The position numbers and the translations under genes are program-made. Below are positions 4,301 to 59,605 of a DNA stretch of 64,000 nucleotides, piece by piece. The first letter of the stretch is position 1. Each line of letters opens with the position of its first letter. The DNA comes from Salinicola avicenniae (GTDB lineage: Bacteria; Pseudomonadota; Gammaproteobacteria; Pseudomonadales; Halomonadaceae). The stretch lies in assembly GCF_023736115.1 (NCBI RefSeq), contig NZ_JAKQZC010000003.1, positions 310,001 through 374,000 on the forward strand. The letters run 5' to 3'. The notes under the pieces were generated by a model. The model ran no database searches. It was not told the origin of the DNA and saw nothing but the letters and a program-made list of their open reading frames with translations.

Positions 4301-4975
4301 TTATGGCGTCAGGGGTTCGACGGTGACATCGGAGGTATTCACGGCGATGACGCGAATGCGAGTCCCTTTCGGGATCGGTACGTCATGATCGGCTCTGGCA
4401 TAACGTTCTCGCGTCAACTGCGCGAACGCGATTCTCACACGGCCGATTTCATTGGGATGAATGGTGATGGTGACGTGGCCTTCGCGACCGACCAGCTCAT
4501 CGTCGGCAATCGAGGAGTCATATTCGCGCTGCTGAAATTTCAGGATTGCCCAGGCGCAGACCATGACGAATAGGCCGGCAGGGACGGCCCAAAGAAGGCC
4601 ACTGGAGAGCGACTCGCCACGCAGGGTGGCAATCAGCCCCATGGGACCGAAACCGGCGCAGAAATAGATGAAAAGCCGTAGCAGGAAGAGCAGCTTGAAC
4701 ACGTGACGACCGGCACGGATGCTGCGACTGTACTGACCGCCTCGTGAGGCGACGCCGTCGGCGCCATCACCCGGGGTGCTGTCGCCGGCCGCGTGGTGGT
4801 GCCCCCCGTTGTCATGTCCACCGTTATCAGAGCCGCCGTTATCAGACCCGCCGTTATGGGCATCGCCGGTGTCGTTATCGCTACCGCTCAAACCGAGACT
4901 TTCGGCGGCTATAACGCCTAGCCCGAATAGACTCAATGTGACGTAAATCCCCAGAATCAGGCCGTCATCGATCAT
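4301..4975 (-). CDS. NfeD-like membrane protein with His/Asp/Gly-rich linker
   Basis: A 224-residue protein with an N-terminal hydrophobic helix (about 5-25), a low-complexity linker (about 30-65) built from DNGGS/DNGGH repeats ending in HHH, two or more helices (about 92-145), and a C-terminal beta-rich OB-fold-like domain ('ELVGREGHVTITIHPNEIGRVRIAF' to 'IRVIAVNTSDVTVEPL'). This fits the short NfeD1b type that accompanies flotillins. The linker comes from a 15-nt DNA repeat. It is the first gene of the operon; upstream DNA is AT-rich and holds an inverted repeat. A metal-binding property of the His/Asp linker is only a guess. Confidence 0.8.
   Translation of the reverse strand: MIDDGLILGIYVTLSLFGLGVIAAESLGLSGSDNDTGDAHNGGSDNGGSDNGGHDNGGHHHAAGDSTPGDGADGVASRGGQYSRSIRAGRHVFKLLFLLRLFIYFCAGFGPMGLIATLRGESLSSGLLWAVPAGLFVMVCAWAILKFQQREYDSSIADDELVGREGHVTITIHPNEIGRVRIAFAQLTRERYARADHDVPIPKGTRIRVIAVNTSDVTVEPLTP
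4806..4865. repeat. four 15-bp in-frame tandem units in the nfeD-like gene
   Basis: Units start at 4806, 4821, 4836 and 4851. The middle two differ at one base, while the outer two are more diverged. Each encodes a variant of DNGGS/DNGGH. Copy changes keep the frame. Confidence 0.85.
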
Positions 4976-5269
4976 TGGATGATGTCTCTATACATAAGAA
5001 AGATGGCAAGTGATGCCAATCGAAAAGCAGGGGATTGATTGATAAATCGAGGCGAAAATCTACGCGAAAGTCCGCATGCTTACAATAAATCAGTGTGTAA
5101 ATTTATTGTTATTATTTGTTGTTGCGGCGTGATGTTTTTTCGATTTAGCGGGAAGGAAAGAACGGCTGTAGGAGATCTCTTAAAAATTTGTCGGTTATTG
5201 GCGTCTTATACTTCTTCTCTTCGTTTATGAGAGGGGGAATCGAGCCAATTAGAGACCGGAGGAGGCCGT
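4976..5269. promoter_or_regulatory. AT-rich leader with 9-bp inverted repeat upstream of the NfeD/flotillin operon
   Basis: This stretch is much richer in A/T than its surroundings. ACAATAAAT (5082-5090) and ATTTATTGT (5101-5109) form a perfect 9-bp inverted repeat with a 10-nt spacer, a typical spacing for a dimeric regulator or a short hairpin. It sits about 110 bp upstream of the minus-strand operon start at 4975. No gene was recognised here. Confidence 0.45.
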
Positions 5270-5494
5270 ATGTGTGGTGCTTGTGTCTCGAAACCGATAG
5301 AACGCTTCCCGGCGCTGCGCCGACATGGCTTCACGCAGACGGTGGCAAGAGATGCCTTGAAAAAGGTCGATAGCGGGCGAGGGAGGGCGGCGGCAGGGGG
5401 TATGGCAATGGGGGACGGAGAGCGTCGCGCAGAACGCCGATCCTCGGGAGCCGGCGCCGGCTCCCGAGACGTCTTCAGCTATTGCGCTCCTTGA
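5270..5494 (+). CDS. doubtful small ORF with a strong ribosome site
   Basis: A 74-codon frame starts with ATG five bases after GGAGGAGG, one of the best Shine-Dalgarno matches in the window. The product (MCGACVSKPIERFP...) has a CxxC near its start. However, the second half is Gly/Ala/Arg-rich and reads through a perfect DNA palindrome and into the end of the convergent ndpA gene, as expected for noncoding GC-rich DNA. No family is recognised. The ribosome site may serve a shorter or degraded gene. Confidence 0.2.
   Translation: MCGACVSKPIERFPALRRHGFTQTVARDALKKVDSGRGRAAAGGMAMGDGERRAERRSSGAGAGSRDVFSYCAP
5443..5468. terminator. 26-bp perfect palindrome after ndpA
   Basis: CTCGGGAGCCGGC and its exact complement abut with no loop, 7 bp downstream of the ndpA stop on the minus strand. 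It could fold as a 3'-end hairpin, but no T-run follows on either strand, so a terminator role is uncertain. Confidence 0.45.
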
Positions 5495-6548
5495 TCTGAT
5501 CTTTCAGTGCCCCCGGTATCTGCTTGATGATCAGGCGGTCGTGTTCTTCGTCGTACTCGATGCTATTGCCGAGCAGGTGCGAGTCGAAGCTGATCGAGAC
5601 ACCGCTGGCGCGGCCGGCAAAGCGCTTGAACTGCTGCAGTGTCCGTTTGTCCGGCGGGATCTCCGCGGACAGGCCGTAGTCCTGATTGCGGATATAGTCG
5701 TAGAACGCCTTTGGCTGCGCTTCGTCGACTAGCTCCGAGAGCTCGTCGAGAGTAATCGCTTCGCCGTTCTTGGCCTGGGTGCTGGCGTAGTCGATCAGCG
5801 TTTCCGTCTTCTCGCGGCTGGCTTCCTCGGGCAGGTCTGCGTTCTCCACATAGTCGCTGAAGGCCTTGAGCAGCGTGCGGGTCTCCGCGCTGGCGTTGAC
5901 CCCCTCCCGACAGCCCAGCCACTCGCGAAAGCCCTCGACCAGCTTCTTGTTGCCGCGATCCTGCACGTAGTTGATGTACTGGCGCGACTGGCCGCGCTGC
6001 CATTGGGTCAAGTCGATGCGGGCGGCGAGCATCAGCTGCCCGAGATTCAACTGCGGTGCCGGGACAACGGCGAGGTCGTCATCGAAGCCGAAGCCCTCGC
6101 GCTGGTGAAGCATCGCCAGGGTTAGGTACTCGCTATCGCCCTGGCGGTAGTGCACGAACCACCAGTGACCGCCGACGGAGAGATGCGCGTCGAGCAGCGG
6201 TAACAGGCTCTCGGTTGCCTGGCGAGTGAAGTTCGTAAAATTGAGCTCGCCGCTGCGATAGCGCGTCAGCTCGGCAGCGAAGCGTGAGGCGGGCAGAGGC
6301 GGTGAATCGGCGTCATCGCTGGCGTCAGTTTCCGGCGTTGGCGCTTCCCCCGCATCGGCCTCGCTCACGTCTACCTCCGCGGCGAAGTGTCCCCAGGCCT
6401 TGGGCTTGCGATGAAAACTCGAGTGGAAATGCGCCAGCAGCGACTCCGCGTTGCCGGTGTCGCTCAACGATTCACCCGCTTTCAGCGTGGCGGGTGAATC
6501 GTCGGCTGCCTTGTCGACGCGATGCGTACAGCTTTGCAGTATCGGCAT
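5475..6548 (-). CDS. ndpA: nucleoid-associated protein NdpA/YejK family
   Basis: A 357-residue member of the NA37/YejK nucleoid-associated family, which binds DNA in the cytoplasm. Family-like stretches include 'FHSSFHRKPKAWGHF', 'LPLLDAHLSVGGHWWFVHYRQGD', 'ARIDLTQWQRGQSRQYINYVQDRG' and the C-terminal 'FKRFAGRASGVSISFDSHLLG'. An acidic, proline-rich insert lies at about residues 58-90. Length agrees with the family (about 335-350) plus this insert. It is a single gene; the next gene upstream, the ABC permease, ends 61 nt away on the same strand. The exact cellular role of the family is not well defined. Confidence 0.9.
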   Translation of the reverse strand: MPILQSCTHRVDKAADDSPATLKAGESLSDTGNAESLLAHFHSSFHRKPKAWGHFAAEVDVSEADAGEAPTPETDASDDADSPPLPASRFAAELTRYRSGELNFTNFTRQATESLLPLLDAHLSVGGHWWFVHYRQGDSEYLTLAMLHQREGFGFDDDLAVVPAPQLNLGQLMLAARIDLTQWQRGQSRQYINYVQDRGNKKLVEGFREWLGCREGVNASAETRTLLKAFSDYVENADLPEEASREKTETLIDYASTQAKNGEAITLDELSELVDEAQPKAFYDYIRNQDYGLSAEIPPDKRTLQQFKRFAGRASGVSISFDSHLLGNSIEYDEEHDRLIIKQIPGALKDQIKERNS

Positions 6549-7371: not shown

Positions 7372-8369
<998 letters not shown>

Positions 8370-11817: not shown

Positions 11818-11924
11818 GGTCTTCAGGCGATAACAGCCCTCACACGCGATACAAGGTTTCACGCGCTATAAAAGCCTTCACATGACGACAATCTTTACAC
11901 GATGAAAATCTTTACACGATGAAA
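11818..11924 (+). repeat. six-unit degenerate tandem repeat running into the RIO kinase start codon
   Basis: Units of 17-19 bp begin at 11818, 11835, 11854, 11873, 11891 and 11908. The last two (ATCTTTACACGATGAAA) are identical; the earlier ones drift but keep a T/C-tract, CAC(A/G)CG and an A-rich end. The final unit contains the kinase ATG at 11919. The repeated ATGs open two nested mini-ORFs: ATG 11882 (MTTIFTR, stop overlapping the next ATG) and ATG 11902 (MKIFTR, stop overlapping the kinase ATG). No clear Shine-Dalgarno sequence precedes the kinase, so translation through these coupled mini-ORFs is possible. Confidence 0.85.
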
Positions 11925-25426: not shown

Positions 25427-26104
25427 ATGAAAAGACTCTACTTGTCCGACACCGTGGCAGGTGAAATCGGTAGCTATATCACGGAAAACCAGCTGGAAGC
25501 CGGGGACCGCCTGCCGTCGGTATCCGAATGGATGACGCGACTGCAAGTGGGGCGTTCGACGCTACGTGAAGGGGTCAAGCGACTTGAGGCCGAGGGGGTC
25601 ATCAAGGTCGTCAATGGCAGAGGGATCTTTGTCAGCGATCAGCAGATTTTTCGCCTCTTTTCGCGCCTGCATGTCACCGATGCGCGTCAGCACCTGCTGG
25701 AGATGCTGGACGTACGCCAGGTGCTGGAGGGCAAGGCCGTGGCGCTGGCGACGGTCAATGCCTGCGAGGCACAGTTCGACGAAATGGCACAGTATCTGGA
25801 AGCATATCGTCAGGCCCGCGAGGACGACGATTTCCTGCGCGTCCATGAAGCGGACAGCGCCTTTCATCTGGCGATCTACCGGGCCAGCGGCAATCAGGTG
25901 ATGGTCGAACTGATCCGCTCGATCCATTCCGAACTCTATGCCTCCTGGCAGACCCCGGAAGATCGCAACAACGTCTTCGACGACAGCTTTCCTCACCACC
26001 TGGCGCTGCTCGAGGCGATGCGTCAGCGCGACGTCGTGGCCGCCAGCGCTGCCTATGTCGATCTGATGGCATCGACGCGCCATACCGTCGAGATCATGGC
26101 GTAA
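25427..26104 (+). CDS. GntR/FadR-family (FCD domain) regulator
   Basis: A 225-residue repressor-type protein. The winged helix is 'VAGEIGSYITENQLEAGDRLPSVSEWMTRLQVGRSTLREGVKRLEAEGVIKVVNGRGIFV' and the effector domain is FCD (about 85-215: 'MLDVRQVLEGKAVALAT', 'ADSAFHLAIYRASGNQVMVELIRSIHSEL', 'HHLALLEAMRQRD'), whose Asp/His residues usually bind a metal and a carboxylate ligand. The start at 25427 removes a poorly supported 29-residue extension. The following GDPD gene begins 70 nt later on the same strand; co-transcription is possible. Confidence 0.88.
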   Translation: MKRLYLSDTVAGEIGSYITENQLEAGDRLPSVSEWMTRLQVGRSTLREGVKRLEAEGVIKVVNGRGIFVSDQQIFRLFSRLHVTDARQHLLEMLDVRQVLEGKAVALATVNACEAQFDEMAQYLEAYRQAREDDDFLRVHEADSAFHLAIYRASGNQVMVELIRSIHSELYASWQTPEDRNNVFDDSFPHHLALLEAMRQRDVVAASAAYVDLMASTRHTVEIMA

Positions 26105-26123
26105 CCGTCGAGGTCATAGCGCA
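26084..26123. repeat. 20-bp tandem duplication across the GntR stop codon
   Basis: The unit ACCGTCGAGATCATGGCGTA (26084-26103) is followed by a copy (26104-26123) with three differences. It spans the TAA stop codon, so the end of the gene is duplicated into the 3' flank. Confidence 0.8.
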
Positions 26124-30440: not shown

Positions 30441-30468
30441 TTGTTTTTATTAAGATTGTTTTTATTAA
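30441..30468. repeat. 13-bp direct repeat in the LysR/dpp divergent promoter
   Basis: TTGTTTTTATTAA occurs at 30441-30453 and 30456-30468, 15 bp apart and 15 bp before the LysR start codon. This AT-rich pair lies in an otherwise GC-rich region and could be a promoter or an autoregulatory site. Confidence 0.75.
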
Positions 30469-36219: not shown

Positions 36220-37638
36220 ATGGCGCGTCAACAAGCGCTGAATCTGGCCTGGCAATATTTCGACAATGGCGACTTCCGCCGGGATCTCGCGACGCGTATC
36301 GCCGTCCGCAGCGAAAGCCAGGAGCCCGGCAGGGAAGCCGAGTTGCGCCACTACCTGACCGCCTGCGTGATCCCGGAGATCGAGGCACTGGGGTTCGGCT
36401 GGGAGATTGTCGATAATCCGGTCGCCGGATTCGGGCCTTTTCTGTTGGCCGAGCGTATCGAACCCGACGCGCCCCTGACCGTGCTGACCTACGGCCACGG
36501 TGATGTCGTGCGCGGCTATGATGCACAGTGGCGCGACGGTCTCTCGCCCTGGGAAATCGTCGAGGAGGGGGACCGTTGGTACGGCCGTGGCACGGCTGAC
36601 AACAAGGGGCAACACAGTATCAATCTGCGGGCGCTGGCCAGCGTGCTCGAGGCGCGCGACGGCCGACTGGGCTACAGCGTCAAGCTCGTGCTGGAGATGG
36701 GGGAGGAGACCGGCTCCCCGGGACTCAAGGCCGTCTGCGAACGCTATGGCGAGCGGCTGGCAGCCGATCTCTTCATTGGCTCCGATGGGCCTCGTCTGGC
36801 GGCCGACGCGCCGACGCTGTTTCTCGGCTCACGAGGGTCGTTCAACTTCGACCTGCGGCTGCGCGCCCGCGATGGCGCGCACCACTCGGGCAACTGGGGC
36901 GGGGTCCTCTCCAATCCGGCCACCAGGCTGGCCAATGCGTGGGCCACACTGGTGGATGCCAAGGGACGAATTCTGATCGAGGGGCTACGGCCTCCGGCCA
37001 TTCCCGCGGCCGTGCATGATGCTGTCAAGGCGCTGTCTGTGGGCGCGACACCGGGGGATCCGGCCATCGATCCGGGCTGGGGGGAGCCGGGCCTGCTGCC
37101 GGCGGAACGTCTCTTCGCCTGGAACACGCTGGAGCTGCTGGCAATGAAGGCCGGCAACCCCGATGCACCCGCCAACGCGATCCCCGGCGAGGCGTACGCG
37201 CACTGTCAGCTGCGCTTCGTGGTTGGCAGCGATCGCGAACACTTTCTCGATCACCTCCGGGGGCATCTGGACGCCCATGGCTTCGAGGACGTGGAAGTCA
37301 GCAGTGCGCGCATGTCGCAGATGAACGCGACGCGGCTCGATCCGACGGACCCCTGGGTCGGCTGGGCGCTCGCATCGATGAGCGAGTCCAGTGGCAAGAC
37401 GCCGACTTTGTTGCCCAACCTTGGTGGATCGCTGCCCAACGATGTCTTTGCCGATACGCTGGGATTGCCCACGCTCTGGGTGCCGCACTCCTATCCTGCC
37501 TGCGCGCAGCATGCACCGGATGAGCATGCGCTGAAGAGTATTGTCCGCGAAGGTCTGGGCATCATGGCGGGGCTATGGTGGGATTTGGGTGAACAAGGCC
37601 GAGACGTGATAAAGGAACGTGAAACATGGCATCGCTGA
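36220..37638 (+). CDS. M20-family metallohydrolase (peptidase/deacylase) 1
   Basis: A 472-residue zinc hydrolase of the M20 family in the cytoplasm. Metal and catalytic motifs: 'LTYGHGDVV' (His and following Asp), 'WYGRGTADNKGQHSINL' (bridging Asp), 'LEMGEETGSPGL' (catalytic Glu-Glu), 'FIGSDGPRL' and, near the end, 'VPHSYPACAQHAPDEH'. The lid/dimerisation domain lies at about 190-360. Hydrolysis of a dipeptide or N-acyl amino acid is expected. It stands 83 nt after the last importer gene on the same strand and overlaps the next M20 gene by 13 nt. Confidence 0.88.
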   Translation: MARQQALNLAWQYFDNGDFRRDLATRIAVRSESQEPGREAELRHYLTACVIPEIEALGFGWEIVDNPVAGFGPFLLAERIEPDAPLTVLTYGHGDVVRGYDAQWRDGLSPWEIVEEGDRWYGRGTADNKGQHSINLRALASVLEARDGRLGYSVKLVLEMGEETGSPGLKAVCERYGERLAADLFIGSDGPRLAADAPTLFLGSRGSFNFDLRLRARDGAHHSGNWGGVLSNPATRLANAWATLVDAKGRILIEGLRPPAIPAAVHDAVKALSVGATPGDPAIDPGWGEPGLLPAERLFAWNTLELLAMKAGNPDAPANAIPGEAYAHCQLRFVVGSDREHFLDHLRGHLDAHGFEDVEVSSARMSQMNATRLDPTDPWVGWALASMSESSGKTPTLLPNLGGSLPNDVFADTLGLPTLWVPHSYPACAQHAPDEHALKSIVREGLGIMAGLWWDLGEQGRDVIKERETWHR

Positions 37639-37661
37639 ACAACATGGCTTCGCCGAACAAC
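37626..37661. repeat. 18-bp tandem duplication at the M20 gene start
   Basis: ATGGCATCGCTGAACAAC (37626-37643) and ATGGCTTCGCCGAACAAC (37644-37661) differ at two bases. Each copy holds an in-frame ATG, so either could be used as the start. Confidence 0.85.
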
Positions 37662-38828
37662 AGGGAAACGATGATGGCGACGGCGTGTGACTGGCTCGCC
37701 GGTCGGCAGGCGGAGATGGTCGAGTGCCTGGAGACGCTGGTCAATATCGATTCCAACAGCTATGACAAGGCCGGCACCGACAGGGTCGCGGACGTGATCG
37801 TCGACTGGCTCGAGGCCGACGGTATCGAGATATTACGTACGCCGCGCCCCGACGCGGGTGACATTCTCGAGGCACGTCTCGACGGTGACGGTCGCGATGC
37901 CGGCAACGGCCACGTCTTGATGATGGGCCATCGCGACACGGTCTTCCCCACGGGAACGGTGGCAACGCGCGGCTACACGCGAGACGGCGACACGGCTTTC
38001 GGGCCGGGGGTCGCCGACATGAAGTCCGGCCTGGTGCTCAATATTTTCGTGCTGCGCGCGCTCAAGCGTCTGGCGCCGTTGCCGTTTCCGGTGCGGGTAC
38101 TGTTTACCGCGGACGAAGAGATAGGCTCTCGTGACGGCACGGCGTTCATTCGCCAGGCGGCCTCGGGCGCCAGGGCCGTGCTCAACGCCGAGCCGGGACG
38201 GATCAGCGGCAATGTGGTGACCGGACGCAAGGGGGGCGCGGCCTTTCTGATCGAGGTGACCGGGCGGGCCGCCCACTCGGGCGTCAGCCATGCGGATGGC
38301 GCCAGCGCCATCGAGGCGCTGGCGCGCAAGATCGTCAAGCTGCATGCGCTGACCGACTATGTGGCCGGCGTGACCACCAATGTCGGTCTGATCGAGGGCG
38401 GCGTATCGCGCAATACCGTGGCGCCTTCTGCCAGTGCTCAGCTCGATACACGCTTCGTCACCAACGCGCAGCGTGAAGCACTGTTGGCCGACATCGAGGC
38501 GATCGTGGCCGAAGAGGACGTCGTCGGTACCCGGGCGACCTTGACGCAGACCTCCGGGTTCCTGCCGATGGAGCCGGCCATGAGCGACGCGTTGTTCGCT
38601 CGCTACCGAGCGCAGGCGGCACGGCTCGGCTTCGAGGTCGACGGCGAGTTTACCGGCGGCTGCTCGGATGCCGGCACGACCGCCAGCCTGGGCATCCCGA
38701 CGCTCTGCGGTACCGGCCCGGTTGGGGCCAAGATGCATACCGAGGCGGAGTACTGTCGTCTCGAGACCTTCGTTCCCCGGGCGCAGGCGGTGGCCTTGAC
38801 CATACTGGACCTGGCCCACCAGGACTGA
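37626..38828 (+). CDS. M20-family metallohydrolase 2 (carboxypeptidase G2-like)
   Basis: A 400-residue M20 hydrolase of a different branch: 'LMMGHRDTVFPTGTVATRGYTRDGDTAFGPGVADMKSGLVLNIFVLRAL', 'VLFTADEEIGSRDG', and C-terminal 'GGCSDAGTTASLGIPTLCGTGPVGAKMHTEAEYC', resembling glutamate carboxypeptidase/CPG2. No signal peptide is visible, so it is cytoplasmic. AAGGAA lies before the ATG. The first 12 residues are a duplicated hexapeptide (MASLNN MASPNN) made by an 18-bp DNA repeat, so the true start may be the second Met. Confidence 0.9.
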   Translation: MASLNNMASPNNRETMMATACDWLAGRQAEMVECLETLVNIDSNSYDKAGTDRVADVIVDWLEADGIEILRTPRPDAGDILEARLDGDGRDAGNGHVLMMGHRDTVFPTGTVATRGYTRDGDTAFGPGVADMKSGLVLNIFVLRALKRLAPLPFPVRVLFTADEEIGSRDGTAFIRQAASGARAVLNAEPGRISGNVVTGRKGGAAFLIEVTGRAAHSGVSHADGASAIEALARKIVKLHALTDYVAGVTTNVGLIEGGVSRNTVAPSASAQLDTRFVTNAQREALLADIEAIVAEEDVVGTRATLTQTSGFLPMEPAMSDALFARYRAQAARLGFEVDGEFTGGCSDAGTTASLGIPTLCGTGPVGAKMHTEAEYCRLETFVPRAQAVALTILDLAHQD

Positions 38829-42252: not shown

Positions 42253-42297
42253 TCAGTCGAGACGTACTCAGTCGAGACGTACTCAGTCGAGACGTGC
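42253..42297. repeat. three 15-bp tandem units over the SIR2-like gene stop codon
   Basis: Units at 42253, 42268 and 42283 (TCAGTCGAGACGTAC, the last ending TGC). The first two are identical and the third differs at one base. The third unit encodes the last residues and stop codon of the SIR2-like gene, so the stop is repeated twice more downstream. Confidence 0.9.
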
Positions 42298-44338: not shown

Positions 44339-44461
44339 GAAGGCCTCCTGCGGATCGGGTTCCGTCCAGACTACACTGCCCGGCGGCAGTGACATATCAT
44401 CGCCTTTGTCGACAGACCGCCCAAGACGGTCGCTAAACACCAGCATACAAGGGAAACGCTC

Positions 44462-44686
44462 ATGCCCGTCCGCCGCTGGATCTGGGGTGTCTGGCTCCTC
44501 GTCCTTCTCTGCTACTTCGTGCCCTATGGCCTGCTCGGGCAGGTGCATGCCTGGTACGGCAGTTTCCTGTTCTGGAGCGTGGTCGGGATACTGGTGATCG
44601 TGGCCAATGTGCTGATCACGCGGGACTTTGGTGAGCGGGACTTTGGTGAGATGCCCGACGATCGCAACGGGGAGGAAGAGGCATGA
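44462..44686 (+). CDS. DUF3311 small membrane protein
   Basis: A 74-residue inner-membrane protein with two hydrophobic helices ('WIWGVWLLVLLCYFVPYGLL', 'GSFLFWSVVGILVIVANVLIT') and an acidic tail. DUF3311 proteins are usually encoded just upstream of SSS symporters, probably as a small subunit. Here ATGA overlap couples it to the symporter. The tail has a duplicated RDFGE from a 15-bp DNA repeat. Confidence 0.88.
   Translation: MPVRRWIWGVWLLVLLCYFVPYGLLGQVHAWYGSFLFWSVVGILVIVANVLITRDFGERDFGEMPDDRNGEEEA
44621..44650. repeat. 15-bp perfect tandem duplication in the DUF3311 gene
   Basis: CGGGACTTTGGTGAG is present at 44621-44635 and 44636-44650, identical and in frame (RDFGE RDFGE). Perfect identity implies a recent event. 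Confidence 0.92.
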
Positions 44687-48305: not shown

Positions 48306-49291
48306 GCGGCTGCCTCCGAGAGACCGAAGCGGGCACGGTAGACGCTGGGCGGCAGGCCGTAATGACGCTGGAACTGGCGCCGCAGCTGCTCCGCACCGCC
48401 GAGCCGACAGTGCGTCGCGATATGCGAAAGTGTGGCATCGCTCTCGGCCAGCTGTTGTCGCGCCAACTCGAGACGAAGGCGGGTCAGGAAGGCGCCGGGA
48501 GTCATGCCTAGCTGTTGGCGAAAGAGGCGCTGGAAGTGGCGTGGCGTGACCGCCATGCTCTCAGCCATCGTGGCGATGTCCCACGCGGCGAGCGGCGTGC
48601 TGATCACCCGGTCGATCACCTCGCGTAGGCGACCATGGCTGGTCAACTGACAGCGCAACCCCTCGCTGAACTGCGCCTGATCGCCGGGGCGATGCAGAAA
48701 CACTACCAGCTCGCGAGCCACGCGGGCTGCCAGCGAAGCCCCATGATCGCGTGCGACGAGCGCCAGGGCCAGGTCGATACCGGCGGTGACGCCGGCGCTG
48801 GTGAAGCGGTTGTCGCTTTCGCAGTAGAGCGCCTGCGCATCGACCTCGAGCAGGGGGAACTCGCGTGCCAGTCGTTCCGCCTGGCGCCAGTGCGTGGCTA
48901 CGCGACAGCCATCCAGCAGGCCGGTGCGGGCCAGCGCGAAAGCACCGGTACAGACCGAGGCAACGCGGGCGCTGCGCAGGGCGCGTTCCCGCAGTAGCGC
49001 GATGTCCTGCTCGTCCAGCGCATGCACGCCATGGCCGCCGGCGATCATCAGCAGGTCGCCGGGCGGTGTGCGCTCGAGCGCATGCGTGGCCATCAGCGTC
49101 ATGCCGCTGTTGGTTCGCACCGGTCCCGGCGCCGTGGCGAGCAGTCTCTGCGTGTAGTGCGTGATCCCCGATTCCTGGTTGGCGCTGGCGAAAACCTGCC
49201 ACGGGCCGCTGGCGTCCAGCAGCTGACAGTCCGGATAGATGAAGAGATCGACGGTTCGGGGCATGTGGGTTCGGGGCATGAGGGGGCGCAT
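48302..49291 (-). CDS. GlxA-family regulator (DJ-1/PfpI domain plus AraC helix-turn-helix)
   Basis: A 329-residue regulator. The N-terminal GATase1-like domain (about 14-180: 'TVDLFIYPDCQLLDASGPWQVFASANQ', 'LLMIAGGHGVHALD', 'VASVCTGAFALARTGLLDGCRVATHW', with the Cys of 'CTGAF') is followed by two AraC helix-turn-helix motifs ('WDIATMAESMAVTPRHFQRLFRQQLGMTPGAFLTRLRLELARQQL', 'HIATHCRLGGAEQLRRQFQRHYGLPPSVYRARF'). Three nearby Met codons (49291, 49279, 49264) arise from a duplicated sequence, so the start is ambiguous. Confidence 0.9.
   Translation of the reverse strand: MRPLMPRTHMPRTVDLFIYPDCQLLDASGPWQVFASANQESGITHYTQRLLATAPGPVRTNSGMTLMATHALERTPPGDLLMIAGGHGVHALDEQDIALLRERALRSARVASVCTGAFALARTGLLDGCRVATHWRQAERLAREFPLLEVDAQALYCESDNRFTSAGVTAGIDLALALVARDHGASLAARVARELVVFLHRPGDQAQFSEGLRCQLTSHGRLREVIDRVISTPLAAWDIATMAESMAVTPRHFQRLFRQQLGMTPGAFLTRLRLELARQQLAESDATLSHIATHCRLGGAEQLRRQFQRHYGLPPSVYRARFGLSEAAA
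49253..49280. repeat. 15-bp-period duplication at the GlxA gene start
   Basis: GGTTCGGGGCATG occurs at 49253-49265 and again at 49268-49280. On the coding strand this doubles 'ATGCCCCGAACC', giving MPRTH-MPRT and two competing in-frame ATGs. Confidence 0.9.
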
Positions 49292-52543: not shown

Positions 52544-53080
52544 CTATTGGCTCCAGAGAGTGGGCAGACGGACCTGAAATACGATCTCGAACAGCAGGTA
52601 ACCGGCGAGCGTGATCACGGCGGTGGCGATGATCTTGCTCGGCAGCTTCTCGCGGATACCGCCGAACAACAGACACAGGAGAAGTACGTAGAGGGCCGTG
52701 GCAAAGAAATAGCCGATGGCGTCGAAGGCGATCAGGTAGCCCGCGGTGAGTCCGATGACGCCAATGGCTCCGGGAGAGAGACCCAGGTAGCGACGGTCGG
52801 CGAGCGCCGGCGATGCGCTATTGGTCTTGGCCTCCGCCTCATCCGCCGTATCGTTTGGCGCCGACGTGGCGAATGACCCGCGCAGGGAATGCCACATGGC
52901 GAAGGCCAGGGCGACGAGCATGATGAGCGCCGTGGCAATGGGAAAGAACGATGCCGTCATGTTGCCGTCGCGCATGGGCGGGCCCAAGCGAAACGCGTCG
53001 ACGAGATAGATCAGGGTGATCACGGCCAGTCCGGCGGGGAAGTAGAAACCGCCGCCGAGGCGAAAGCGTCTGGAGTTCAT
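52544..53080 (-). CDS. tctB: tripartite tricarboxylate transporter small subunit TctB
   Basis: A 178-residue membrane protein with four helices ('GGFYFPAGLAVITLIYLVDAFRLGPP...ASFFPIATALIMLVALAFAMWHSL', 'LGLSPGAIGVIGLTAGYLIAFDAIGYFFATALYVLLLCLLFGG', 'TAVITLAGYLLFEIVFQVRLP'). It is the usual poorly conserved small subunit between TctC and TctA. The start is ATG 53080; a TTG at 53095 would add five residues coded by repeat DNA. Confidence 0.9.
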   Translation of the reverse strand: MNSRRFRLGGGFYFPAGLAVITLIYLVDAFRLGPPMRDGNMTASFFPIATALIMLVALAFAMWHSLRGSFATSAPNDTADEAEAKTNSASPALADRRYLGLSPGAIGVIGLTAGYLIAFDAIGYFFATALYVLLLCLLFGGIREKLPSKIIATAVITLAGYLLFEIVFQVRLPTLWSQ

Positions 53081-53084
53081 GGGC

Positions 53085-53179
53085 GTACCTGTCAACGGAG
53101 GGTGCCTGTCAGTGGAGAGGGGCTGTCAGCAGGGGCCTGTCAGCAATAGTTTTTTCGAAATGGTCTTTTCGCAATGGTC
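53085..53179. repeat. two families of short tandem repeats in the tctC-tctB leader
   Basis: Four degenerate units sharing CCTGTCA(A/G) begin near 53085, 53102, 53121 and 53134, with 13-19 bp lengths. Directly after them a 14-bp unit TTTTCG(A/C)AATGGTC is repeated twice (53152-53165, 53166-53179) with one mismatch. The 159-bp gap between tctC and tctB is mostly repeat. Confidence 0.8.
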
Positions 53180-53239
53180 TGTCAGCGAGCGCCGCGCCTG
53201 GCAGGGCGCGGCGATTCACGAAAGGGCGGTGGCGGTGCG

Positions 53240-54232
53240 CTACTTCTCGAGCACACCCTGCTCGGCCAGCTCGTCCATCGTCTCGAACAGGTGGGTCTGG
53301 GTCTGTTCGGCCCACTCGGAGACCTCGTCGGTGCCCAGCCAGGCCGGTGTGACGCCGATCTGCTGCAGCCACTGCTGGAACTCGTCGCTTTCGTAGGCGT
53401 CGTGGTAGGTCGTCTCGAGCGTCTCGATCACGTCGTCCGGCGTGCGTGCCGGTGCGACCAGCACGATGAAACTGCCCATCTGCAGGTCGACATCGGTATC
53501 GGTCTCGGTGACTGGCGGCACATCGGGGAAGCCTTCGTTCTGGGTGTCCGTGAACTCCACCAGTCCGCGCGCCTGACCGGATTCGATCAGCGGCGCGAGG
53601 TCGCCGAGGCTGGTGACCACGCCATCCACTTCGCCGTTGAGCAGCGCCTCTTTCTGGGTGGCGGCGCTGTTGTCGTAGGAGACGATCTTGAACTCGGCGC
53701 CGGTCATTTCCTGCAATTGCAGGAGCGTCAGGTAGGTGCGCCCGCCCATGTTCTGGACGCCCAGACGGATGCTATCGGGGGTCTCCTTGGCGGCGGCAAT
53801 CAGATCGCTGAAGTTGTCGTAGGGCGCGTCCGCGGCCACGGTAATGGCATCGGCCTCGCTGGTGATACGCGCAATCATACGCATCTGATCGAGGCTATAG
53901 CCCGGCAGCATGTTCTTCCACGGGATGGTGATGACGCTGTCGTAGGTGATCGCCGCGATGGTCTGGCCGTCGGGACGCGCCTTCATCAGTTGCAGGAGCC
54001 CGGTCGCGGTCATCCCGCCCTCGACGTTCTCGACGTACATCGAGACCGGCAGCGAGTCCTCGGCGATATTGGAGATCTTGCGCACGATGGCATCGGTACC
54101 GCCCCCGGCCGCGGCTGGCACGATAACGCGCACATCGCGGCTGGGGTAGTCGGCATAGGCACTGCCGACGGTGAAGCTCGCCAGGCAGGTGAGGCCGACG
54201 AGAGCTGTCTTGAGGGCTGGTTTGAAAATCAT
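53240..54232 (-). CDS. tctC: tripartite tricarboxylate transporter binding protein TctC
   Basis: A 330-residue periplasmic receptor of the TctC/Bug family. The signal peptide ends near AYA-DY (residue 27). Core: 'YPSRDVRVIVPAAAGGGTDAIVRKIS', 'VENVEGGMTATGLLQLMKARPDGQT', 'IRLGVQNMGGRTYLTLLQLQEMTGAEFKIVSYDNSAATQKEALLNGEVDGVVTSLG'. It is the first gene of the operon. The ligand, an organic di- or tricarboxylate, cannot be fixed from sequence, and no two-component regulator is encoded nearby. Confidence 0.93.
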   Translation of the reverse strand: MIFKPALKTALVGLTCLASFTVGSAYADYPSRDVRVIVPAAAGGGTDAIVRKISNIAEDSLPVSMYVENVEGGMTATGLLQLMKARPDGQTIAAITYDSVITIPWKNMLPGYSLDQMRMIARITSEADAITVAADAPYDNFSDLIAAAKETPDSIRLGVQNMGGRTYLTLLQLQEMTGAEFKIVSYDNSAATQKEALLNGEVDGVVTSLGDLAPLIESGQARGLVEFTDTQNEGFPDVPPVTETDTDVDLQMGSFIVLVAPARTPDDVIETLETTYHDAYESDEFQQWLQQIGVTPAWLGTDEVSEWAEQTQTHLFETMDELAEQGVLEK

Positions 54233-54343: not shown

Positions 54344-54382
54344 TGGCAAGACCACGTTGGCAAGACCACGCTGGCGAGATCG
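54344..54382. repeat. 14-bp tandem repeat in the tctC-glnE divergent region
   Basis: TGGCAAGACCACGT (54344-54357), TGGCAAGACCACGC (54358-54371) and a third, decayed TGGCGAGATCG (54372-54382). It lies about 115-155 bp before the glnE start and about 110 bp before the tctC start. Confidence 0.85.
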
Positions 54383-54497
54383 TGCGGCTTCCTTTGGCTC
54401 GCGAAAGCGGTTTGGCTATGCTGGCAGGGCTTTGGCGGCCGTTCAGTCTCCGGCGATCGCCCCTCGCTATCCTCTTTGCCCTAGCGGAGTGTTACCC

Positions 54498-57446
54498 ATG
54501 CCCCTGGCCGATGACTGGTTCCCCGATCTGGCGCTGCCGGCTGCTCTCGAGTCGACCTGGCAGACGGCGCGACGACAGCTCGTGGCGGGGACGGCGGACG
54601 CCGACGACGAGGCGCTCGCCGCCTGGCTGGCTCTGCCGTCGGAACGTCGCCGCCTGCTGGCGCGGGTCTGCCTGCTTTCCGACTTTGCCCGGGATCTATG
54701 GGGCCAGCATCCCGACTGGTTGGGCCTGTTGCAGGATCAGGGCGAACTGGAGACGGCCCCGCCGCGCGCCACGCTCGATGCCTGGCTGGCGGCGAGTCTC
54801 GAAACGGTCACGGACGAGGCGGGGCTGCACGCCGAGCTGCGCCGCTTTCGGCAGCGTCGCATGCTGGGCATCGTCTGGCGCCATCTCGCCGGCGGCGACA
54901 TGTGGCAGACGGCCGGTGCTGTCTCCGCACTCGCCGAGAGCTGTCTCGAGGGGGCACTGCGCTGGCTCGAGACACATCTGTCCACGCGCTGGGGCACGCC
55001 GGCAGCGCGCGCGGATGGCTCGCCCCAGCGGCTGGTCGTGCTCGGCATGGGCAAGCTGGGCGCCGGCGAGCTCAATCTCTCTTCCGATATCGATCTGATC
55101 TTCGCCTACCCGGAGGCGGGAACGACTCGCGGCGGCGAACGCGAATATGACCATCAGCAGTACTTCACCAAGCTTGGCCAGAAGCTGATCGCGGCGCTGG
55201 ACACCATCACCGCCGACGGCTTCGCGTTTCGGGTCGACATGCGTCTGCGACCGCTCGGCGACGGTGGCCCGCTGGTGGGCAATTTCAACTCGCTGACCGG
55301 CTACTATCAGGATCAGGGGCGTGAATGGGAGCGCTACGCGCTGCTCAAGGCGCGCCCGGTGGCCGGCGATCTCGCGGCCGGTGACGAGCTGTTGCGGGCG
55401 CTCAATCCGTTCATCTACCGCAAGTATCTGGATTTCGGCGCGATCGAGTCGCTGCGCGAGATGAAGGGGCTGATTCATCGCGAGGTCAAGCGGCTGGGGC
55501 GTGAGGAGAACATCAAGCTCGGCCGTGGCGGTATCCGCGAGGTCGAATTCGTCGTGCAGGCGTTTCAGCTGATCCGCGGCGGGCGCGATACCGAACTGCA
55601 GGTCACGTCGTTGCGGGTCGCCATGCGGCAGCTCGTCGAGCTCGAGCTGCTGCCGCCCGCGGTGGTCGACGAGCTGCACGATGATTATGTCTTTCTGCGC
55701 GATCTTGAGCACGCTCTGCAGGCCCAGCAGGATCGCCAGACCCAGACGCTGCCGCAGGACGATGTCGGTCGCGCGCGCCTGGCGCTTGCCATGGGGCTGA
55801 CGGACTGGGCGGCGCTGTGTGACGCGCTGGACGCGTGCCGGGCCCGAGTGCGCTCTCATTTCGATGCCGTGGTCGCCGATCCCGAGGCCGAAACGCAAGA
55901 CTCCGAGCAGACCGATGCCGCGCACGTCTGGTGGCAGCTGTGGCAAGGCGAACTGGCAGCCGACGAGGCCCAGGCCGTGCTCGATCGGGCCGGTTTCCCG
56001 CTGCCGGAGGCCTATCGTCGTCTGACCGCGTTTCGCCAGTCGCGTGGCGTGCAGTCGATGCAGCGTATCGGCTACGAGCGACTGGAAGCGGTCATGCCGC
56101 TGCTGCTGGAAGCCCTGGCGGAAAGCGACGCCCCGGGTGTCGCACTCGAGCGCGTGTTGCCACTGATCGAGGCGGTGCTGCGGCGCACGGCCTACCTGTC
56201 GTTGCTTAAGGAGAATCCGCATGTGCTGCCTTCGTTGGTGCGGTTGTGCGCGGCGAGTCCTTGGATCGCCGAGCAGCTGGCGCGCCACCCGATCCTGCTC
56301 GATGAGCTGCTGACGCCGGACACGCTCTATTCGCCCGCGGATCGCCAGCGGCTGGCCGACGAACTGCGCCAGACCCTGGCGCGGATTCCCGAGGATGACG
56401 AGGAGGCTTGGCTGGAAGCGATGCGGGTCTTCAAGCAGACCCAGGTGCTGCGCGTCGCCGCCTCGGATATCGCCGGCGCGCGCGTGCTGATGAAAGTGAG
56501 CGACTATCTCACCGCCATTGCCGAGGTCGTGTTGGAGAGCGTGCTGCAGATGGCGTGGCGGTCGTTGACCGCGCGTTACGGGCAGCCCCAGCCACGCGAA
56601 GGCGCCGATACGGCCGCTTTCCTGATTGTCGGCTACGGCAAGCTCGGTGGCATCGAGCTGGGCTATGGCTCGGATCTCGATCTGGTCTTTCTCTATGATG
56701 CGGCACCGCAGGGCGCGACCGATGGTCCCAAGTCGCTCGACAACGTGGTGTTTTTCACGCGGCTGGGGCAGCGCATCATCCATCTGCTGACGGCCACTAC
56801 GCCAAGCGGCACCCTCTACGAGGTCGACATGCGGCTGCGGCCGTCCGGCAATGCCGGTCTGTTGGTTTCCTCGCTCGAGGCGTTCGCCGAGTATCAGCGT
56901 CGCGAGGCGTGGACCTGGGAGCACCAGGCGCTGGTGCGGGCCCGGGCGGTGGCCGGCGACGATCGGCTGGCGGCGCGCTTCGGCGAGGTGCGCCGAGAGA
57001 TTCTCGGGCGGCCGCGCGACAGCGAGACGCTGCGCGGCGAAGTGGTCAACATGCGGGCGAAGATGCGCGACCATTTGGGTAGCGGACTCGAGGCGCGGGA
57101 GGCCGGCCAGTTCCATCTCAAGCAGGATGCCGGCGGGCTGGTGGATATCGAGTTCATGAACCAGTATGCGGTGCTGGCGTTCTCCGGCGAGACGCCGGCG
57201 CTGCTCGAGGTGACCGACAACATGCGCCTGCTCGATGCGCTGGCCGATAGCGGACGTCTGCCGGATCGCGATGCCCGCGACCTGCAGGCGGCGTACCTGG
57301 CCTACCGCGATGCCAGTCATCGCGCGGCGCTGGCGAAGGCCGGCAGCCTGGTGCCGGCGTCAGCCTATGCCGAGTATCGTCAGCGTGTGTGCGAACTGTG
57401 GCAGCGCTGGATGACACCTGGCGACGAGACGACAAACGGTCCATGA
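54498..57446 (+). CDS. glnE: bifunctional glutamine synthetase adenylyltransferase/deadenylase
   Basis: A 982-residue enzyme that adds AMP to, and removes it from, glutamine synthetase as nitrogen status changes. Two nucleotidyltransferase domains are visible: the deadenylase near residues 195-203 ('LSSDIDLIFAYPE') and the adenylylase near 720-731 ('GYGSDLDLVFLYDA'), each followed by 'VDMRLRP'. Other family stretches are 'LGRGGIREVEFVVQAFQLIRGGRD' and 'QDAGGLVDIEFMNQYAVL'. ATG 54498 has GCGGAG upstream. The length is as in other proteobacteria (about 945-985). No glnB or ntr genes lie near. Confidence 0.96.
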   Translation: MPLADDWFPDLALPAALESTWQTARRQLVAGTADADDEALAAWLALPSERRRLLARVCLLSDFARDLWGQHPDWLGLLQDQGELETAPPRATLDAWLAASLETVTDEAGLHAELRRFRQRRMLGIVWRHLAGGDMWQTAGAVSALAESCLEGALRWLETHLSTRWGTPAARADGSPQRLVVLGMGKLGAGELNLSSDIDLIFAYPEAGTTRGGEREYDHQQYFTKLGQKLIAALDTITADGFAFRVDMRLRPLGDGGPLVGNFNSLTGYYQDQGREWERYALLKARPVAGDLAAGDELLRALNPFIYRKYLDFGAIESLREMKGLIHREVKRLGREENIKLGRGGIREVEFVVQAFQLIRGGRDTELQVTSLRVAMRQLVELELLPPAVVDELHDDYVFLRDLEHALQAQQDRQTQTLPQDDVGRARLALAMGLTDWAALCDALDACRARVRSHFDAVVADPEAETQDSEQTDAAHVWWQLWQGELAADEAQAVLDRAGFPLPEAYRRLTAFRQSRGVQSMQRIGYERLEAVMPLLLEALAESDAPGVALERVLPLIEAVLRRTAYLSLLKENPHVLPSLVRLCAASPWIAEQLARHPILLDELLTPDTLYSPADRQRLADELRQTLARIPEDDEEAWLEAMRVFKQTQVLRVAASDIAGARVLMKVSDYLTAIAEVVLESVLQMAWRSLTARYGQPQPREGADTAAFLIVGYGKLGGIELGYGSDLDLVFLYDAAPQGATDGPKSLDNVVFFTRLGQRIIHLLTATTPSGTLYEVDMRLRPSGNAGLLVSSLEAFAEYQRREAWTWEHQALVRARAVAGDDRLAARFGEVRREILGRPRDSETLRGEVVNMRAKMRDHLGSGLEAREAGQFHLKQDAGGLVDIEFMNQYAVLAFSGETPALLEVTDNMRLLDALADSGRLPDRDARDLQAAYLAYRDASHRAALAKAGSLVPASAYAEYRQRVCELWQRWMTPGDETTNGP

Positions 57447-57480
57447 AAACAGCGGTGGGTGACGGTATCATTAAGGCTTC

Positions 57481-58134
57481 ATGACTCTTGTTCGCGGTGT
57501 GGAGCCGCCCGCCATGCTTTCACTAACCTCCGCCAGCGAGATTGCTCACGGCAACGACCGGGCGATCTTCCGGCATCCCGAGTATGCCGATCGCTGCATC
57601 AAGGTCGCGCGCTTTCCCGAGCGCGGCAGTCATCAAAACGAGCGCGAAAAGCACTACTTCGAAGGCCTTCTGCGGCGCGGCCTCGATGACTGGTCCTACG
57701 TGCCGGCGTACTACGGGACGCTCGAGACCGATCGCGGCGAGGGGCTGGTGTTTTCCCTGATTGTGGATGCCGACGGCACGGTGTCGCGGACACTGCGCCA
57801 GATTCAGCGTGCGGGCGACGACGATGGCTGGCTGCAGAGCCAGGCCTTTCACGACGAGCTGCACGCGCTTTACGCCTATCTACGTCGCCACTGGGTCGTG
57901 CCGTCGGACATCAACGATCGCAATATCGTGTGTCAGCACCTGGCCGACGGCCGCCGTCGGCTGTGGCTGATCGACGGTGTCTCCAATCCCGACTTCATGC
58001 CGCTGGCCAACGTCTGGCCGTGGTTCGCGCGGCAGAAGATCGATCGCCGCATGAAGCGCTTTTTCGCCAAGCTGACGCGTGCCGGGCTGCTGCCGGAAAC
58101 CCAGCGCGAGGCGCTGACGCGCGCGCCCTGCTGA
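57481..58134 (+). CDS. YrbL-family kinase-like protein
   Basis: A 217-residue protein of the YrbL (PhoP-regulated) family, with a kinase-like core: 'GNDRAIFRHPEYADRCIKVARFPERG' (putative ATP lysine), 'HWVVPSDINDRNIVCQHL' (catalytic-loop-like Asp and Asn) and 'RLWLIDGVSNPDFMP' (DFG-like Asp). It may phosphorylate a small molecule or protein. ATG 57481 has TAAGG seven bases upstream; MLSLTS 11 codons later is an alternative. It lies 34 nt after glnE on the same strand, so it may be co-transcribed. Confidence 0.82.
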   Translation: MTLVRGVEPPAMLSLTSASEIAHGNDRAIFRHPEYADRCIKVARFPERGSHQNEREKHYFEGLLRRGLDDWSYVPAYYGTLETDRGEGLVFSLIVDADGTVSRTLRQIQRAGDDDGWLQSQAFHDELHALYAYLRRHWVVPSDINDRNIVCQHLADGRRRLWLIDGVSNPDFMPLANVWPWFARQKIDRRMKRFFAKLTRAGLLPETQREALTRAPC

Positions 58135-58216
58135 CCCGGTGAGGCGAATGCCGACGGGCGGCGGCGGCTCTCAGGCAACAGGCGTCCACGACTTCGCCGG
58201 TTCACAGACACAAAGA

Positions 58217-58245
58217 CCCCGCCGTCAGCACGGCGGGGCCTTCTT
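58217..58245 (+). terminator. rho-independent terminator after the YrbL-like gene
   Basis: CCCCGCCGT (58217-58225) pairs with ACGGCGGGG (58230-58238) across a CAGC loop, followed by CCTTCTT. AAAG lies on the left side, so weak reverse activity is also possible. Confidence 0.7.
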
Positions 58246-58251
58246 CATGAG

Positions 58252-58324
58252 TAGCGCCTACGTCAGGGATAGCGTCTACGCCATGGATAGTGCCTAAGTC
58301 ACGGGCAACGCCTACGTCGCCGGA
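58252..58324. repeat. four 18-bp degenerate tandem units between yrbL-like gene and trhO
   Basis: Units begin at 58252, 58270, 58288 and 58306: TAGCGCCTACGTCAGGGA, TAGCGTCTACGCCATGGA, TAGTGCCTAAGTCACGGG, CAACGCCTACGTCGCCGGA. They share (T/C)A(G/A)(C/T)G(C/T)CTA(C/A)G. They lie in the 3' flank of trhO. Confidence 0.85.
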
Positions 58325-58348
58325 CCCGGTGTCAGGCCCGGTCGTGAC

Positions 58349-59287
58349 TCAGTGCTGGGCGCGCGGGTCGCGGCCGATCGGGTGCGGCTCGTTGCGCGCT
58401 CGGGCGAGTTCGATCTGCTTCTGTCGCTCGCGCGCGCTGGCGCGGGTCTTCTCCGGCAGTGAGTCCCAGCAGTGGGGACAGCTGATGCCCGGTGAATACC
58501 GCTCGGAGGCCTGATCCGCCGCGGAGATCGGCCGGCGGCAGGCATGACACTGTTCGAATTCGCCTTTGCTCAGGTCGTGTCGCACGGTCACCCGGTTGTC
58601 GAAGACGAAGCAGTCGCCGCGCCAGCGGGTCTCGCTCTCCGGCACTTTCTCCAGATAGTTGAGAATGCCACCCTTCAGGTGAAAGACTTCATCGAAGCCT
58701 TCGTTGAGCATGAAGCTCGACGCTTTCTCGCAGCGAATGCCGCCGGTGCAGAACATTGCCACCTTCTTGTGACGGGCGGGATCGTAGTGCTCGCGAACGT
58801 AGTCGGGGAACTCGCGAAACGAACGGGTTTCAGGGTCGACCGCGCCTTCGAAGCTGCCGATCGCGACCTCATAGTCGTTGCGGGTATCGATCACCAGGAC
58901 TTCGGGATCGTCGATCAGGTCGTTCCACTGCTCGGGTTCGACGTAGGTGCCGACGCGCGTGTTGGGGTCGACGCCTTCGACGCCCATGGTCACGATCTCG
59001 CGCTTGAGCTTGACCTTGGTGCGGTAGAACGGATGCGCGTCGCAGTAGGACTCCTTGTGATCGAGTGCCGCCAGCCGCGGATCGCGCTTGAGCCAATCGA
59101 GCAGGGCAGCGATGGCATCCGGTGTCCCGGAGACGGTGCCGTTGATGCCCTCGCGGGCGAGCAGCAGCGTGCCCTTGACGTCGAGTCGTTTCATCTCCGC
59201 GAGCAGCGGCTCGCGCAGGGCTTCGAAGTCGTCGAGTGTCACGAACTGATAAAGCGCCGCGACGACGATCGGTCGGTCGTTGGTCAT
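58349..59287 (-). CDS. trhO: tRNA uridine(34) hydroxylase (rhodanese-like)
   Basis: A 312-residue YceA/TrhO protein that makes 5-hydroxyuridine at tRNA position 34. The N-terminal acylphosphatase-like part ('[44 protein letters not shown]') precedes a rhodanese domain with active-site Cys180 in '[15 protein letters not shown]'. A C-terminal Cys-rich segment ('CHACRRPIS', 'SPGISCPHC') forms a likely zinc site. Length and motifs are as in E. coli, so the call is firm. It is monocistronic, with tandem repeats in both flanks. Confidence 0.95.
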
Positions 59288-59605
59288 GCAAAAACTCCTG
59301 GCAGTCGCCCGCGTAAAGGGCGGACCGGGTCGGCCTGTATCGATATCGGAAAACGCCTGGGCGTTTCTGTCGAAACGATAGGGCGTTCGAAACGAAAGGG
59401 CGTTCGAAACGAGAGCGCGCTCGGCTGAAGGCCCGAGCGCACCGGCTACGCGACGGGACGTGCGCCCGTCGGATGCCGCATTTTACGCCGCTGGCCAAAG
59501 AGGTCCAGTGACAGCGGGTCGCGGCGACAGGGATCGCCGCGCGGGCATGGACTTTCCCGTTGCGAGCCGTTATTGATAACGGCTGTCGTAAACATGGGTT
59601 AAGTC
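59288..59605. other. trhO 5' region with 17-bp tandem repeats
   Basis: This 318-bp divergent region holds the promoter of trhO and of the membrane-protein gene at 59606. Three 17-bp units (59370-59420: TCGAAACGATAGGGCGT, TCGAAACGAAAGGGCGT, TCGAAACGAGAGCGCGC) lie 83-133 bp before the trhO start. No gene was recognised. Confidence 0.75.

What the first reader, a model, noticed from the sequence alone, without database searches (positions are those of the whole stretch)
4806..59420. Short 14-20 bp tandem duplications recur at gene edges across the window
At least eleven loci carry 2-6 adjacent copies of a 14-20 bp unit: 4806, 11818, 26084, 37626, 42253, 44621, 49253, 53085-53179 (two families), 54344, 58252 and 59370. 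A direct repeat at 30441 (15-bp spacing) makes twelve. Nearly all touch a start codon, a stop codon or a 5' or 3' leader; only 4806 and 44621 are inside genes, and those are in frame. Units differ in sequence from place to place, so this is not one dispersed repeat family. The same size and position class points to a common process, for example slippage or repair at gene boundaries, or to selection for extra start/stop copies. I know of no described system with this pattern.
Basis: partly seen in the sequence, partly recalled or inferred. Interest (0 to 1): 0.72.

Follow-up and report, generated by a model that had tools for sequence, protein, structure and literature searches.

The report
Short tandem duplications tolerated outside genes
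This relative of salt-loving Salinicola bacteria keeps acquiring small back-to-back copies of roughly 12 to 21 DNA letters, and they collect between genes and across gene ends mainly because an extra copy does little harm there.

Summary
The repeats are real: 12 arrays in the window against 0.05 per dinucleotide shuffle. They continue through the genome, a Salinicola relative: 48 arrays of period 13-30 bp outside genes or across gene edges in the 864 kb sampled, with none there in one shuffle. Units show no shared family. Density is about 40 per 100 kb of non-coding and 2 per 100 kb of coding DNA; 13 of 15 in-gene arrays keep frame. Around stops, density falls to zero 30-60 bp inside genes and stays broadly level outside. 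Gene edges are thus mostly the border of tolerated territory: a tandem copy spanning a stop or start leaves one intact gene whatever its length. Relatives show new copies and copy-number change. Best reading: birth of bacterial minisatellites by short tandem duplication plus purifying selection. Left over: a roughly two-fold excess across stops, clear only in this genome; a size hump at 13-16 bp; strong lineage dependence (0 in 250 kb of E. coli K-12). No Ku gene was found.

The parts
4821..4857 (.). 15-bp unit x 2.5, inside the NfeD-like gene 4301-4975(-); in frame
11827..11882 (.). degenerate 19-bp unit x 2.9 (70% matches) just upstream of the next array
11890..11924 (+). 17-bp unit x 2.1, exact, each copy holding an ATG; the second copy holds the called start of the RIO-kinase-like gene 11919-12782. 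The first ATG opens MKIFTR* whose TGA overlaps the called ATG (read by eye)
26084..26121 (+). 20-bp unit x 1.9 spanning the TAA of the GntR/FCD regulator 25427-26104; no array in the bases after the one orthologue found (L125)
30441..30468 (.). 13-bp direct repeat, period 15, AT-rich, upstream of the called start (30426) of a LysR gene (-) in the divergent gap to 30640(+); an alternative TTG start at 30486 would place it in the gene; could be an operator rather than a duplication
37623..37662 (+). 18-bp unit x 2.2 spanning the stop of the M20 peptidase 36220-37638 and possible in-frame starts of the next M20 gene (first ATG 37626)
42253..42295 (-). 15-bp unit x 2.9, exact, each copy ending in TGA at the 3' end of 42283-43446(-)
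44620..44650 (.). 15-bp unit x 2.1, exact, in the divergent gap between nadC-like 43451-44548(-) and the SSF transporter 44683-46176(+)
49253..49284 (-). 15-bp unit x 2.1, in frame, in the first codons of the AraC/DJ-1 gene 48302-49291(-); repeats a possible ATG start
53088..53144 (.). degenerate 17-bp unit x 3.5 in the gap between TctB 52544-53080(-) and TctC 53240-54232(-)
53152..53180 (.). 14-bp unit x 2.1 in the same gap
54344..54379 (+). 14-bp unit x 2.6 at the 5' end or leader of glnE (first start TTG 54357, called start 54498)
58252..58318 (.). degenerate 18-bp unit x 3.7 in the convergent gap yrbL 57481-58134 / rhodanese gene 58349-59287(-)
59370..59423 (.). 17-bp unit x 3.2 upstream of the rhodanese gene start (59287, -)

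Best explanation
These are independent short tandem duplications (mostly 12-21 bp) that arise across the chromosome and sometimes grow into small minisatellites by copy-number change. Purifying selection removes them inside genes unless they keep frame. It tolerates them between genes and across gene edges, because a tandem copy that spans a stop leaves the first stop in place and one that spans a start leaves the last start in place, whatever the unit length. Shown here: the excess over shuffles, the coding/non-coding contrast, the frame rule, unrelated units, absence from the few orthologous edges available, and new copies between close relatives. Inferred: that births are spread evenly before selection, and the birth step itself, most likely replication misalignment or copying of a displaced short strand; Ku-dependent joining is unlikely because no Ku gene was found in this genome.
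For: Own genome sample, period 13-30 bp, at least 88% identity: 48 arrays in 119.6 kb outside genes or across edges against 15 in about 744 kb of coding DNA, 13 of the 15 in frame; one shuffle gave 1, inside a gene. Step at stops. 52 arrays show no family sequence. 5 of 16 stop-edge genes queried had orthologues in the sampled relatives, and none showed the array in the 60 bases printed. L005 carries a 14-bp and a 17-bp tandem copy absent from its 93.9%-identical relative L003. The yrbL-rhodanese gap has an 18-bp x 3.7 array here, a different 18-bp x 6.4 array in L005, about 2 copies by eye in L003, and nothing flagged by the detector in that gap in the other 11 Salinicola loci. 22 of 49 own arrays have at most 1 bp of periodic match beyond two copies.
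Against: A neutral-plus-decay model predicts about 12% of outside arrays across stops; 31% (15 of 48, 88% identity) and 24% (20 of 83, 82%) are seen in this genome. In convergent gaps the contrast is sharper: 7 stop-spanning against 1 internal at 88%, 11 against 8 at 82%. Plain slippage predicts the shortest units to be the commonest; the pooled exact-copy excess is large at 7 bp, dips at 9-12 bp and humps at 13-16 bp. Only 3 of 8 insertions of 6-55 bp in three close pairs were clear tandem copies, and 4 of 16 gaps in a second scan, two of these at one place. Junction homology is mixed: over five genomes 20 of 55 two-copy arrays have 3 bp or more of extra match, against 10% in simulated copies.
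Confidence: 0.77

Rival explanations
1. A duplication process focused on stop codons or gene 3' ends, for example nicks or R-loops where ribosomes leave the transcript, adds to the general background.
For: 15 stop-spanning arrays against 3.6 expected by uniform placement in non-coding DNA (P about 1e-6); a surplus survives a model with slower decay of the coding copy and restriction to convergent gaps. G005 leans the same way (4 of 17, P 0.03), and G009 (5 array starts in the 30 bp before stops, 3 in the 60 bp after).
Against: Pooled over G005, G009, G007, G018 and G017, 13 arrays start in the 30 bp before stops and 41 in the 60 bp after, no surplus; G009, G007, G018 and G017 are not significant. 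Uniform placement overstates the free space, since promoters and missed genes count as free. The test was chosen after seeing the data.
Confidence: 0.15
2. Selection for spare stop or start codons keeps the copies.
For: Many stop-spanning arrays repeat an intact stop codon (read by eye); 11890, 37623 and 49253 repeat an ATG.
Against: 5 of 15 stop-spanning periods are multiples of three, as chance gives; start-spanning arrays are at expectation, 4 against 3.6.
Confidence: 0.04
3. Staggered breaks filled in and joined by Ku/LigD end joining.
For: Little junction homology in 22 of 49 arrays.
Against: Ku (PF02735) was not found in this genome nor in G005, G009 and G007; it is present in 8 of 18 genomes of the genus, and this genome has the highest density of the seven measured. 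Ku was not sought in G018 or G017.
Confidence: 0.03
4. Some of them are functional direct repeats (operators), kept by selection.
For: 30441 and 44620 lie in divergent gaps; divergent gaps have the highest density of internal arrays in this genome at 88% identity, 15 in 32.4 kb.
Against: Unit sequences are unrelated. The few orthologous edges checked lack the arrays, but 30441 and 44620 themselves were not checked in relatives.
Confidence: 0.1

Closest known systems
Bacterial minisatellites / VNTR loci (as used in MLVA typing)
   Same: Head-to-tail units of about 10-25 bp, mostly outside genes, with copy number that changes between close strains.
   Different: Many here are two-copy arrays; copy-number change was seen in relatives, not in the window's own species, for which no second strain was found.
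Short tandem duplications as the main kind of short insertion in eukaryotes (recalled: Messer and Arndt 2007; PMC2374710 seen in a listing only)
   Same: Adjacent copy of unrelated sequences.
   Different: Bacterial genome; size hump at 13-16 bp.
Insertions mediated by short direct repeats in yeast rad27 (FEN1) mutants (PMC5677150, passages seen)
   Same: Tandem gain of units in an overlapping size range (one locus with a 16-bp unit); Okazaki-fragment processing is implicated.
   Different: There the events are flanked by repeats of 1-21 bp; here 22 of 49 show at most 1 bp of extra match.
Palindromic units and other small dispersed repeats (PMC2884548, passages seen)
   Same: Small and intergenic.
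   Different: Those share sequence between places; these do not.

Membership tests
Bacterial minisatellite / VNTR | Head-to-tail copies of a unit longer than about 9 bp | tested here: met
Bacterial minisatellite / VNTR | Copy number differs between close strains | tested here: inconclusive
   Met at one locus in relatives (18-bp unit, 6.4 copies in L005 against about 2 by eye in L003); for the window's species no second strain was held
REP/BIME, small dispersed repeats, MITE | Same sequence at many places | tested here: not met
   52 arrays: pairs sharing 8/9/10/11-mers 33/7/4/0 against 45.7/11.3/2.8/0.9 in shuffles; of 10 window units tried, 8 have no second copy within 2 mismatches in 864 kb, two 14-bp units have 5 and 14. 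Units at 4821, 30441, 49253 and 53088 were not tried
Ku/LigD fill-in joining | Ku gene present | tested here: not met
   0 matches in G000
Selection for spare stop codons | Second stop in frame with the gene | tested here: not met
   5 of 15 stop-spanning periods divisible by 3
Gene-boundary-targeted process | Density at edges above that of adjacent intergenic DNA | tested here: inconclusive
   About two-fold at stops in this genome, none at starts, weak or null in the other five genomes

The most novel reading that the evidence does not exclude
Salinicola and some related lineages run an elevated duplication process that copies stretches of about 13-16 nt in tandem and is absent or rare in E. 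coli. The size would mark a short single strand of fixed length that is resynthesised and then ligated back instead of being removed, such as a nucleotide-excision-repair 12-13-mer or an Okazaki primer flap (both lengths recalled). Within this genome it strikes about twice as often across stop codons as nearby.
Probability: 0.17. Interest if true: 0.62.

Novelty: new member of a known kind. Interest (0 to 1): 0.36.

Why it matters
It explains a striking pattern by a simple rule: a tandem copy across a gene edge leaves the gene readable whatever its length, so edges and gaps record the mutation while genes hide it. Counting arrays between genes then gives a cheap read-out of a mutation type that differs between bacterial lineages (39 per 100 kb of non-coding DNA here, 2 in G017, 0 in the E. 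coli sample). The size hump, if it holds, would point to a specific repair or replication intermediate.

Tried and rejected
Ku-dependent joining: rejected for this genome, no Ku found. Repair-gene loss as the cause of high density: exonuclease I (PF08411) and exonuclease VII (PF02601) are present in all 7 genomes tested; SbcD (TIGR00619) is present in the five Salinicola and not found in G018 (dense) or G017 (sparse); MutH is not found in any of the 7. None of these separates dense from sparse genomes among those 7. A hard lower size limit of 12 bp: it looked sharp with whole-sequence shuffles and a low-complexity filter and in run-length counts, but with intergenic-only shuffles and no filter the pooled exact excess is 11.1 at 7 bp, 4.7 at 8 bp, 8.7 over 9-12 bp and 21.9 over 13-16 bp, so I keep a hump, not a floor, and the 7-bp excess speaks against a strict size gate. 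Long junction microhomology: mixed; 22 of 49 own arrays have none, 12 have 4-9 bp and 15 have 13 or more, partial third copies that cannot be told from homology; over five genomes 20 of 55 two-copy arrays have 3 bp or more against 10% in simulated copies. Spare-stop selection: rejected by frame. C-terminal frameshift as the source of stop-edge arrays: the gene end matches orthologues at L076:13744 (3 of 3 relatives) and has the same length in one relative each at 36220 and 25427, while C-termini differ at 42283 and L071:18503; 11 of the 16 genes queried had no orthologue in the sampled DNA. Close-pair alignments were partly non-collinear (overall identity 0.83-0.90), and the third pair gave no usable gap, so that test is small. 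Literature: seven searches, seen as listings with the start of each abstract, plus passages of PMC2884548 and PMC5677150; no listed title or abstract opening described this pattern, and I make no wider claim about print. Gene calls are from my own simple caller (on E. coli L184 it found 41 of 43 annotated stops and 37 exact starts), so start-side statements are weaker than stop-side ones.
Full report
WHERE. The window is G000:C5:310001-374000 of a 4.03-Mb genome. It falls in the same genus as the Salinicola records returned, by matching contig lengths and protein identity (68-78% for the glnE product at 54357-57446; the gene is named from Pfam). No close strain was found: in the parts that align, sampled Salinicola loci are 76-80% identical to the window at the DNA level.

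OBSERVATION. Tandem Repeats Finder and my own detector find most of the reported repeats, and the rest were read by eye. With periods of 12-25 bp and adjacent copies at least 88% identical there are 12 arrays in the window, against 0.05 per shuffle over 20 dinucleotide shuffles; 3 arrays are exact against none. Three places are degenerate (70-76% matches).

GENOME. I took 800 kb more of the same genome, so the sample is 864 kb or about a fifth of it, and called genes with a simple codon-usage caller (checked on E. coli L184: 41 of 43 stops, 37 of 43 starts). Over periods of 10-40 bp there are 127 arrays against 53 in one shuffle. In one search, chance accounts for periods 10-11 and almost nothing from 13 bp up outside genes. 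For periods of 13-30 bp at 88% identity there are 29 arrays between genes, 15 across stops, 4 across starts and 15 inside genes, of which 13 have a period divisible by three; one shuffle gave 1, inside a gene. That is 40 per 100 kb outside genes and 2 per 100 kb inside. Between genes periods divisible by three are not favoured (6 of 30).

EDGES. Across stops the count is 15 against 3.6 expected if a unit is placed at random with at least one non-coding base; across starts it is 4 against 3.6. This looked like a stop-targeted process, so I tested it three ways. (1) Around stops with at least 60 bp of downstream gap (82% identity), array starts per 100 kb run 0 and 0 in the bins 60-30 bp inside the gene, 107 and 169 in the two 15-bp bins before the stop, 61-123 in the four bins after it, 19-146 in the next five, and 0-71 in the last four. 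So the main feature is a step at the gene end, with a modest surplus at it. (2) A forward model with slower decay of the coding copy predicts about 12% of outside arrays at stops; 31% (15 of 48) are seen at 88% identity and 24% (20 of 83) at 82%. (3) In convergent gaps, which should lack promoters of the flanking genes, 7 span stops and 1 is internal at 88%; 11 and 8 at 82%. A roughly two-fold surplus therefore survives in this genome. In G005, G009, G007, G018 and G017 the test gives 4 of 17 (P 0.03), 2 of 11, 0 of 7, 2 of 14 and 0 of 1; pooled over these five, 13 arrays start in the 30 bp before stops and 41 in the 60 bp after, although G009 alone leans the other way (5 and 3). I report the surplus as unexplained and do not build on it.

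WHY EDGES ARE PERMITTED. A tandem copy of a stretch that contains a stop leaves the first stop where it was; a copy of a stretch that contains a start leaves the last start and what follows intact. Both hold for any unit length, whereas inside a gene mainly multiples of three survive. This follows from the geometry and fits the frame counts above. Selection for spare stops would favour periods divisible by three at stops; 5 of 15 are.

AGE AND LIVENESS. For 5 of 16 stop-edge genes queried, orthologues were present in the sampled relatives, and none showed the array in the 60 bases printed after the aligned end (by eye). Between two records named S. salarius and 93.9% identical, L005 has a 14-bp and a 17-bp tandem copy that L003 lacks, and 6.4 against about 2 copies of an 18-bp unit after yrbL (L005 has a short run of N in that gap). 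In all, 3 of 8 insertions of 6-55 bp in three close pairs were clear tandem copies, one of them only 6 bp long; the alignments were partly non-collinear and the third pair gave none. A wider scan of 260 kb of redundant alignments found 16 gaps of 9-40 bp, 4 of them tandem at 80% identity or more, two of these at the same place in two species, against 0 of 800 random positions. The window's own 58252 array sits in that same yrbL-rhodanese gap with a different unit; the detector flagged nothing in that gap in the other 11 Salinicola loci, though L008 looks faintly repetitive by eye. I read this as separate births in one permissive gap.

SIZE AND LINEAGE. Pooled over this genome, three other Salinicola and G018 (340 kb of gaps), exact two-copy arrays exceed intergenic shuffles by 11.1 at 7 bp, 4.7 at 8 bp, 8.7 over 9-12 bp, 21.9 over 13-16 bp and 5 over 17-21 bp, with 4 arrays from 22 to 30 bp. 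An earlier count suggested a sharp floor at 12 bp; the better control softened it to a dip and a hump. Density per 100 kb of non-coding DNA (period 13-30, 88%): own 39.3 (95% interval 28.9-52.3), G005 27.6, G009 17.7, G007 12.8, G018 27.9, G017 2.1, E. coli K-12 0 (0-9.7; 0 arrays in 250 kb, 38.1 kb counted as non-coding with rRNA, 27.7 kb without). Intervals of the denser genomes overlap. Exonuclease I, exonuclease VII, SbcD and MutH content does not track this among 7 genomes, and Ku is absent from the four Salinicola whose density was measured from stretches. Kinship does not track it simply either: G018 and G017 are both 'same order'.

MECHANISM. Shown: independent tandem duplications, tolerated outside genes, with recent gains in the genus. 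Inferred: the birth is a replication or repair accident that copies a short strand in place. Of 49 own arrays, 22 show at most 1 bp of periodic match beyond two copies, 12 show 4-9 bp and 15 show 13 or more (partial third copies); over five genomes 20 of 55 two-copy arrays have 3 bp or more, against 10% in simulated copies without homology. So homology may help some births but is not needed for all. Ku joining is unlikely here. Yeast rad27 mutants gain units of similar size (PMC5677150, passages), a parallel only.

KNOWN KIND. This fits bacterial minisatellites and VNTR loci in their birth phase. It is not a dispersed family. The pattern needs no new system; the stop surplus, the size hump and the lineage contrast are the parts worth a second look.

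Noticed in passing
window 11890-11960: The 17-bp start duplication creates a six-codon upstream reading frame (MKIFTR*) whose TGA overlaps the called ATG of the RIO-kinase-like gene, so it may couple or lower its translation.
   Followed up: partly
L005 13698-13918 and window 58134-58348: The yrbL-rhodanese convergent gap holds unrelated 18-bp arrays in two Salinicola lineages, a much longer spacer in L012 (about 600 bp), and only about 30 bp in L017: a very labile gap beside glnE.
   Followed up: partly
window 22612-22785 and 23758-23822: Repeats of 3-33 bp and 18 bp in the 3' parts of the TPM-domain gene and the DEAD-box helicase gene; they look like protein low complexity, not the same class.
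   Followed up: no
window 30441-30468: AT-rich 13-bp direct repeat, period 15, just upstream of a LysR-type regulator start; a possible operator pair.
   Followed up: no
G001, G002, G003, G008, G010, G011, G012, G021: Eight of 18 genomes of the genus carry two neighbouring Ku-like genes; in the other ten, the window's genome included, none was found.
   Followed up: no
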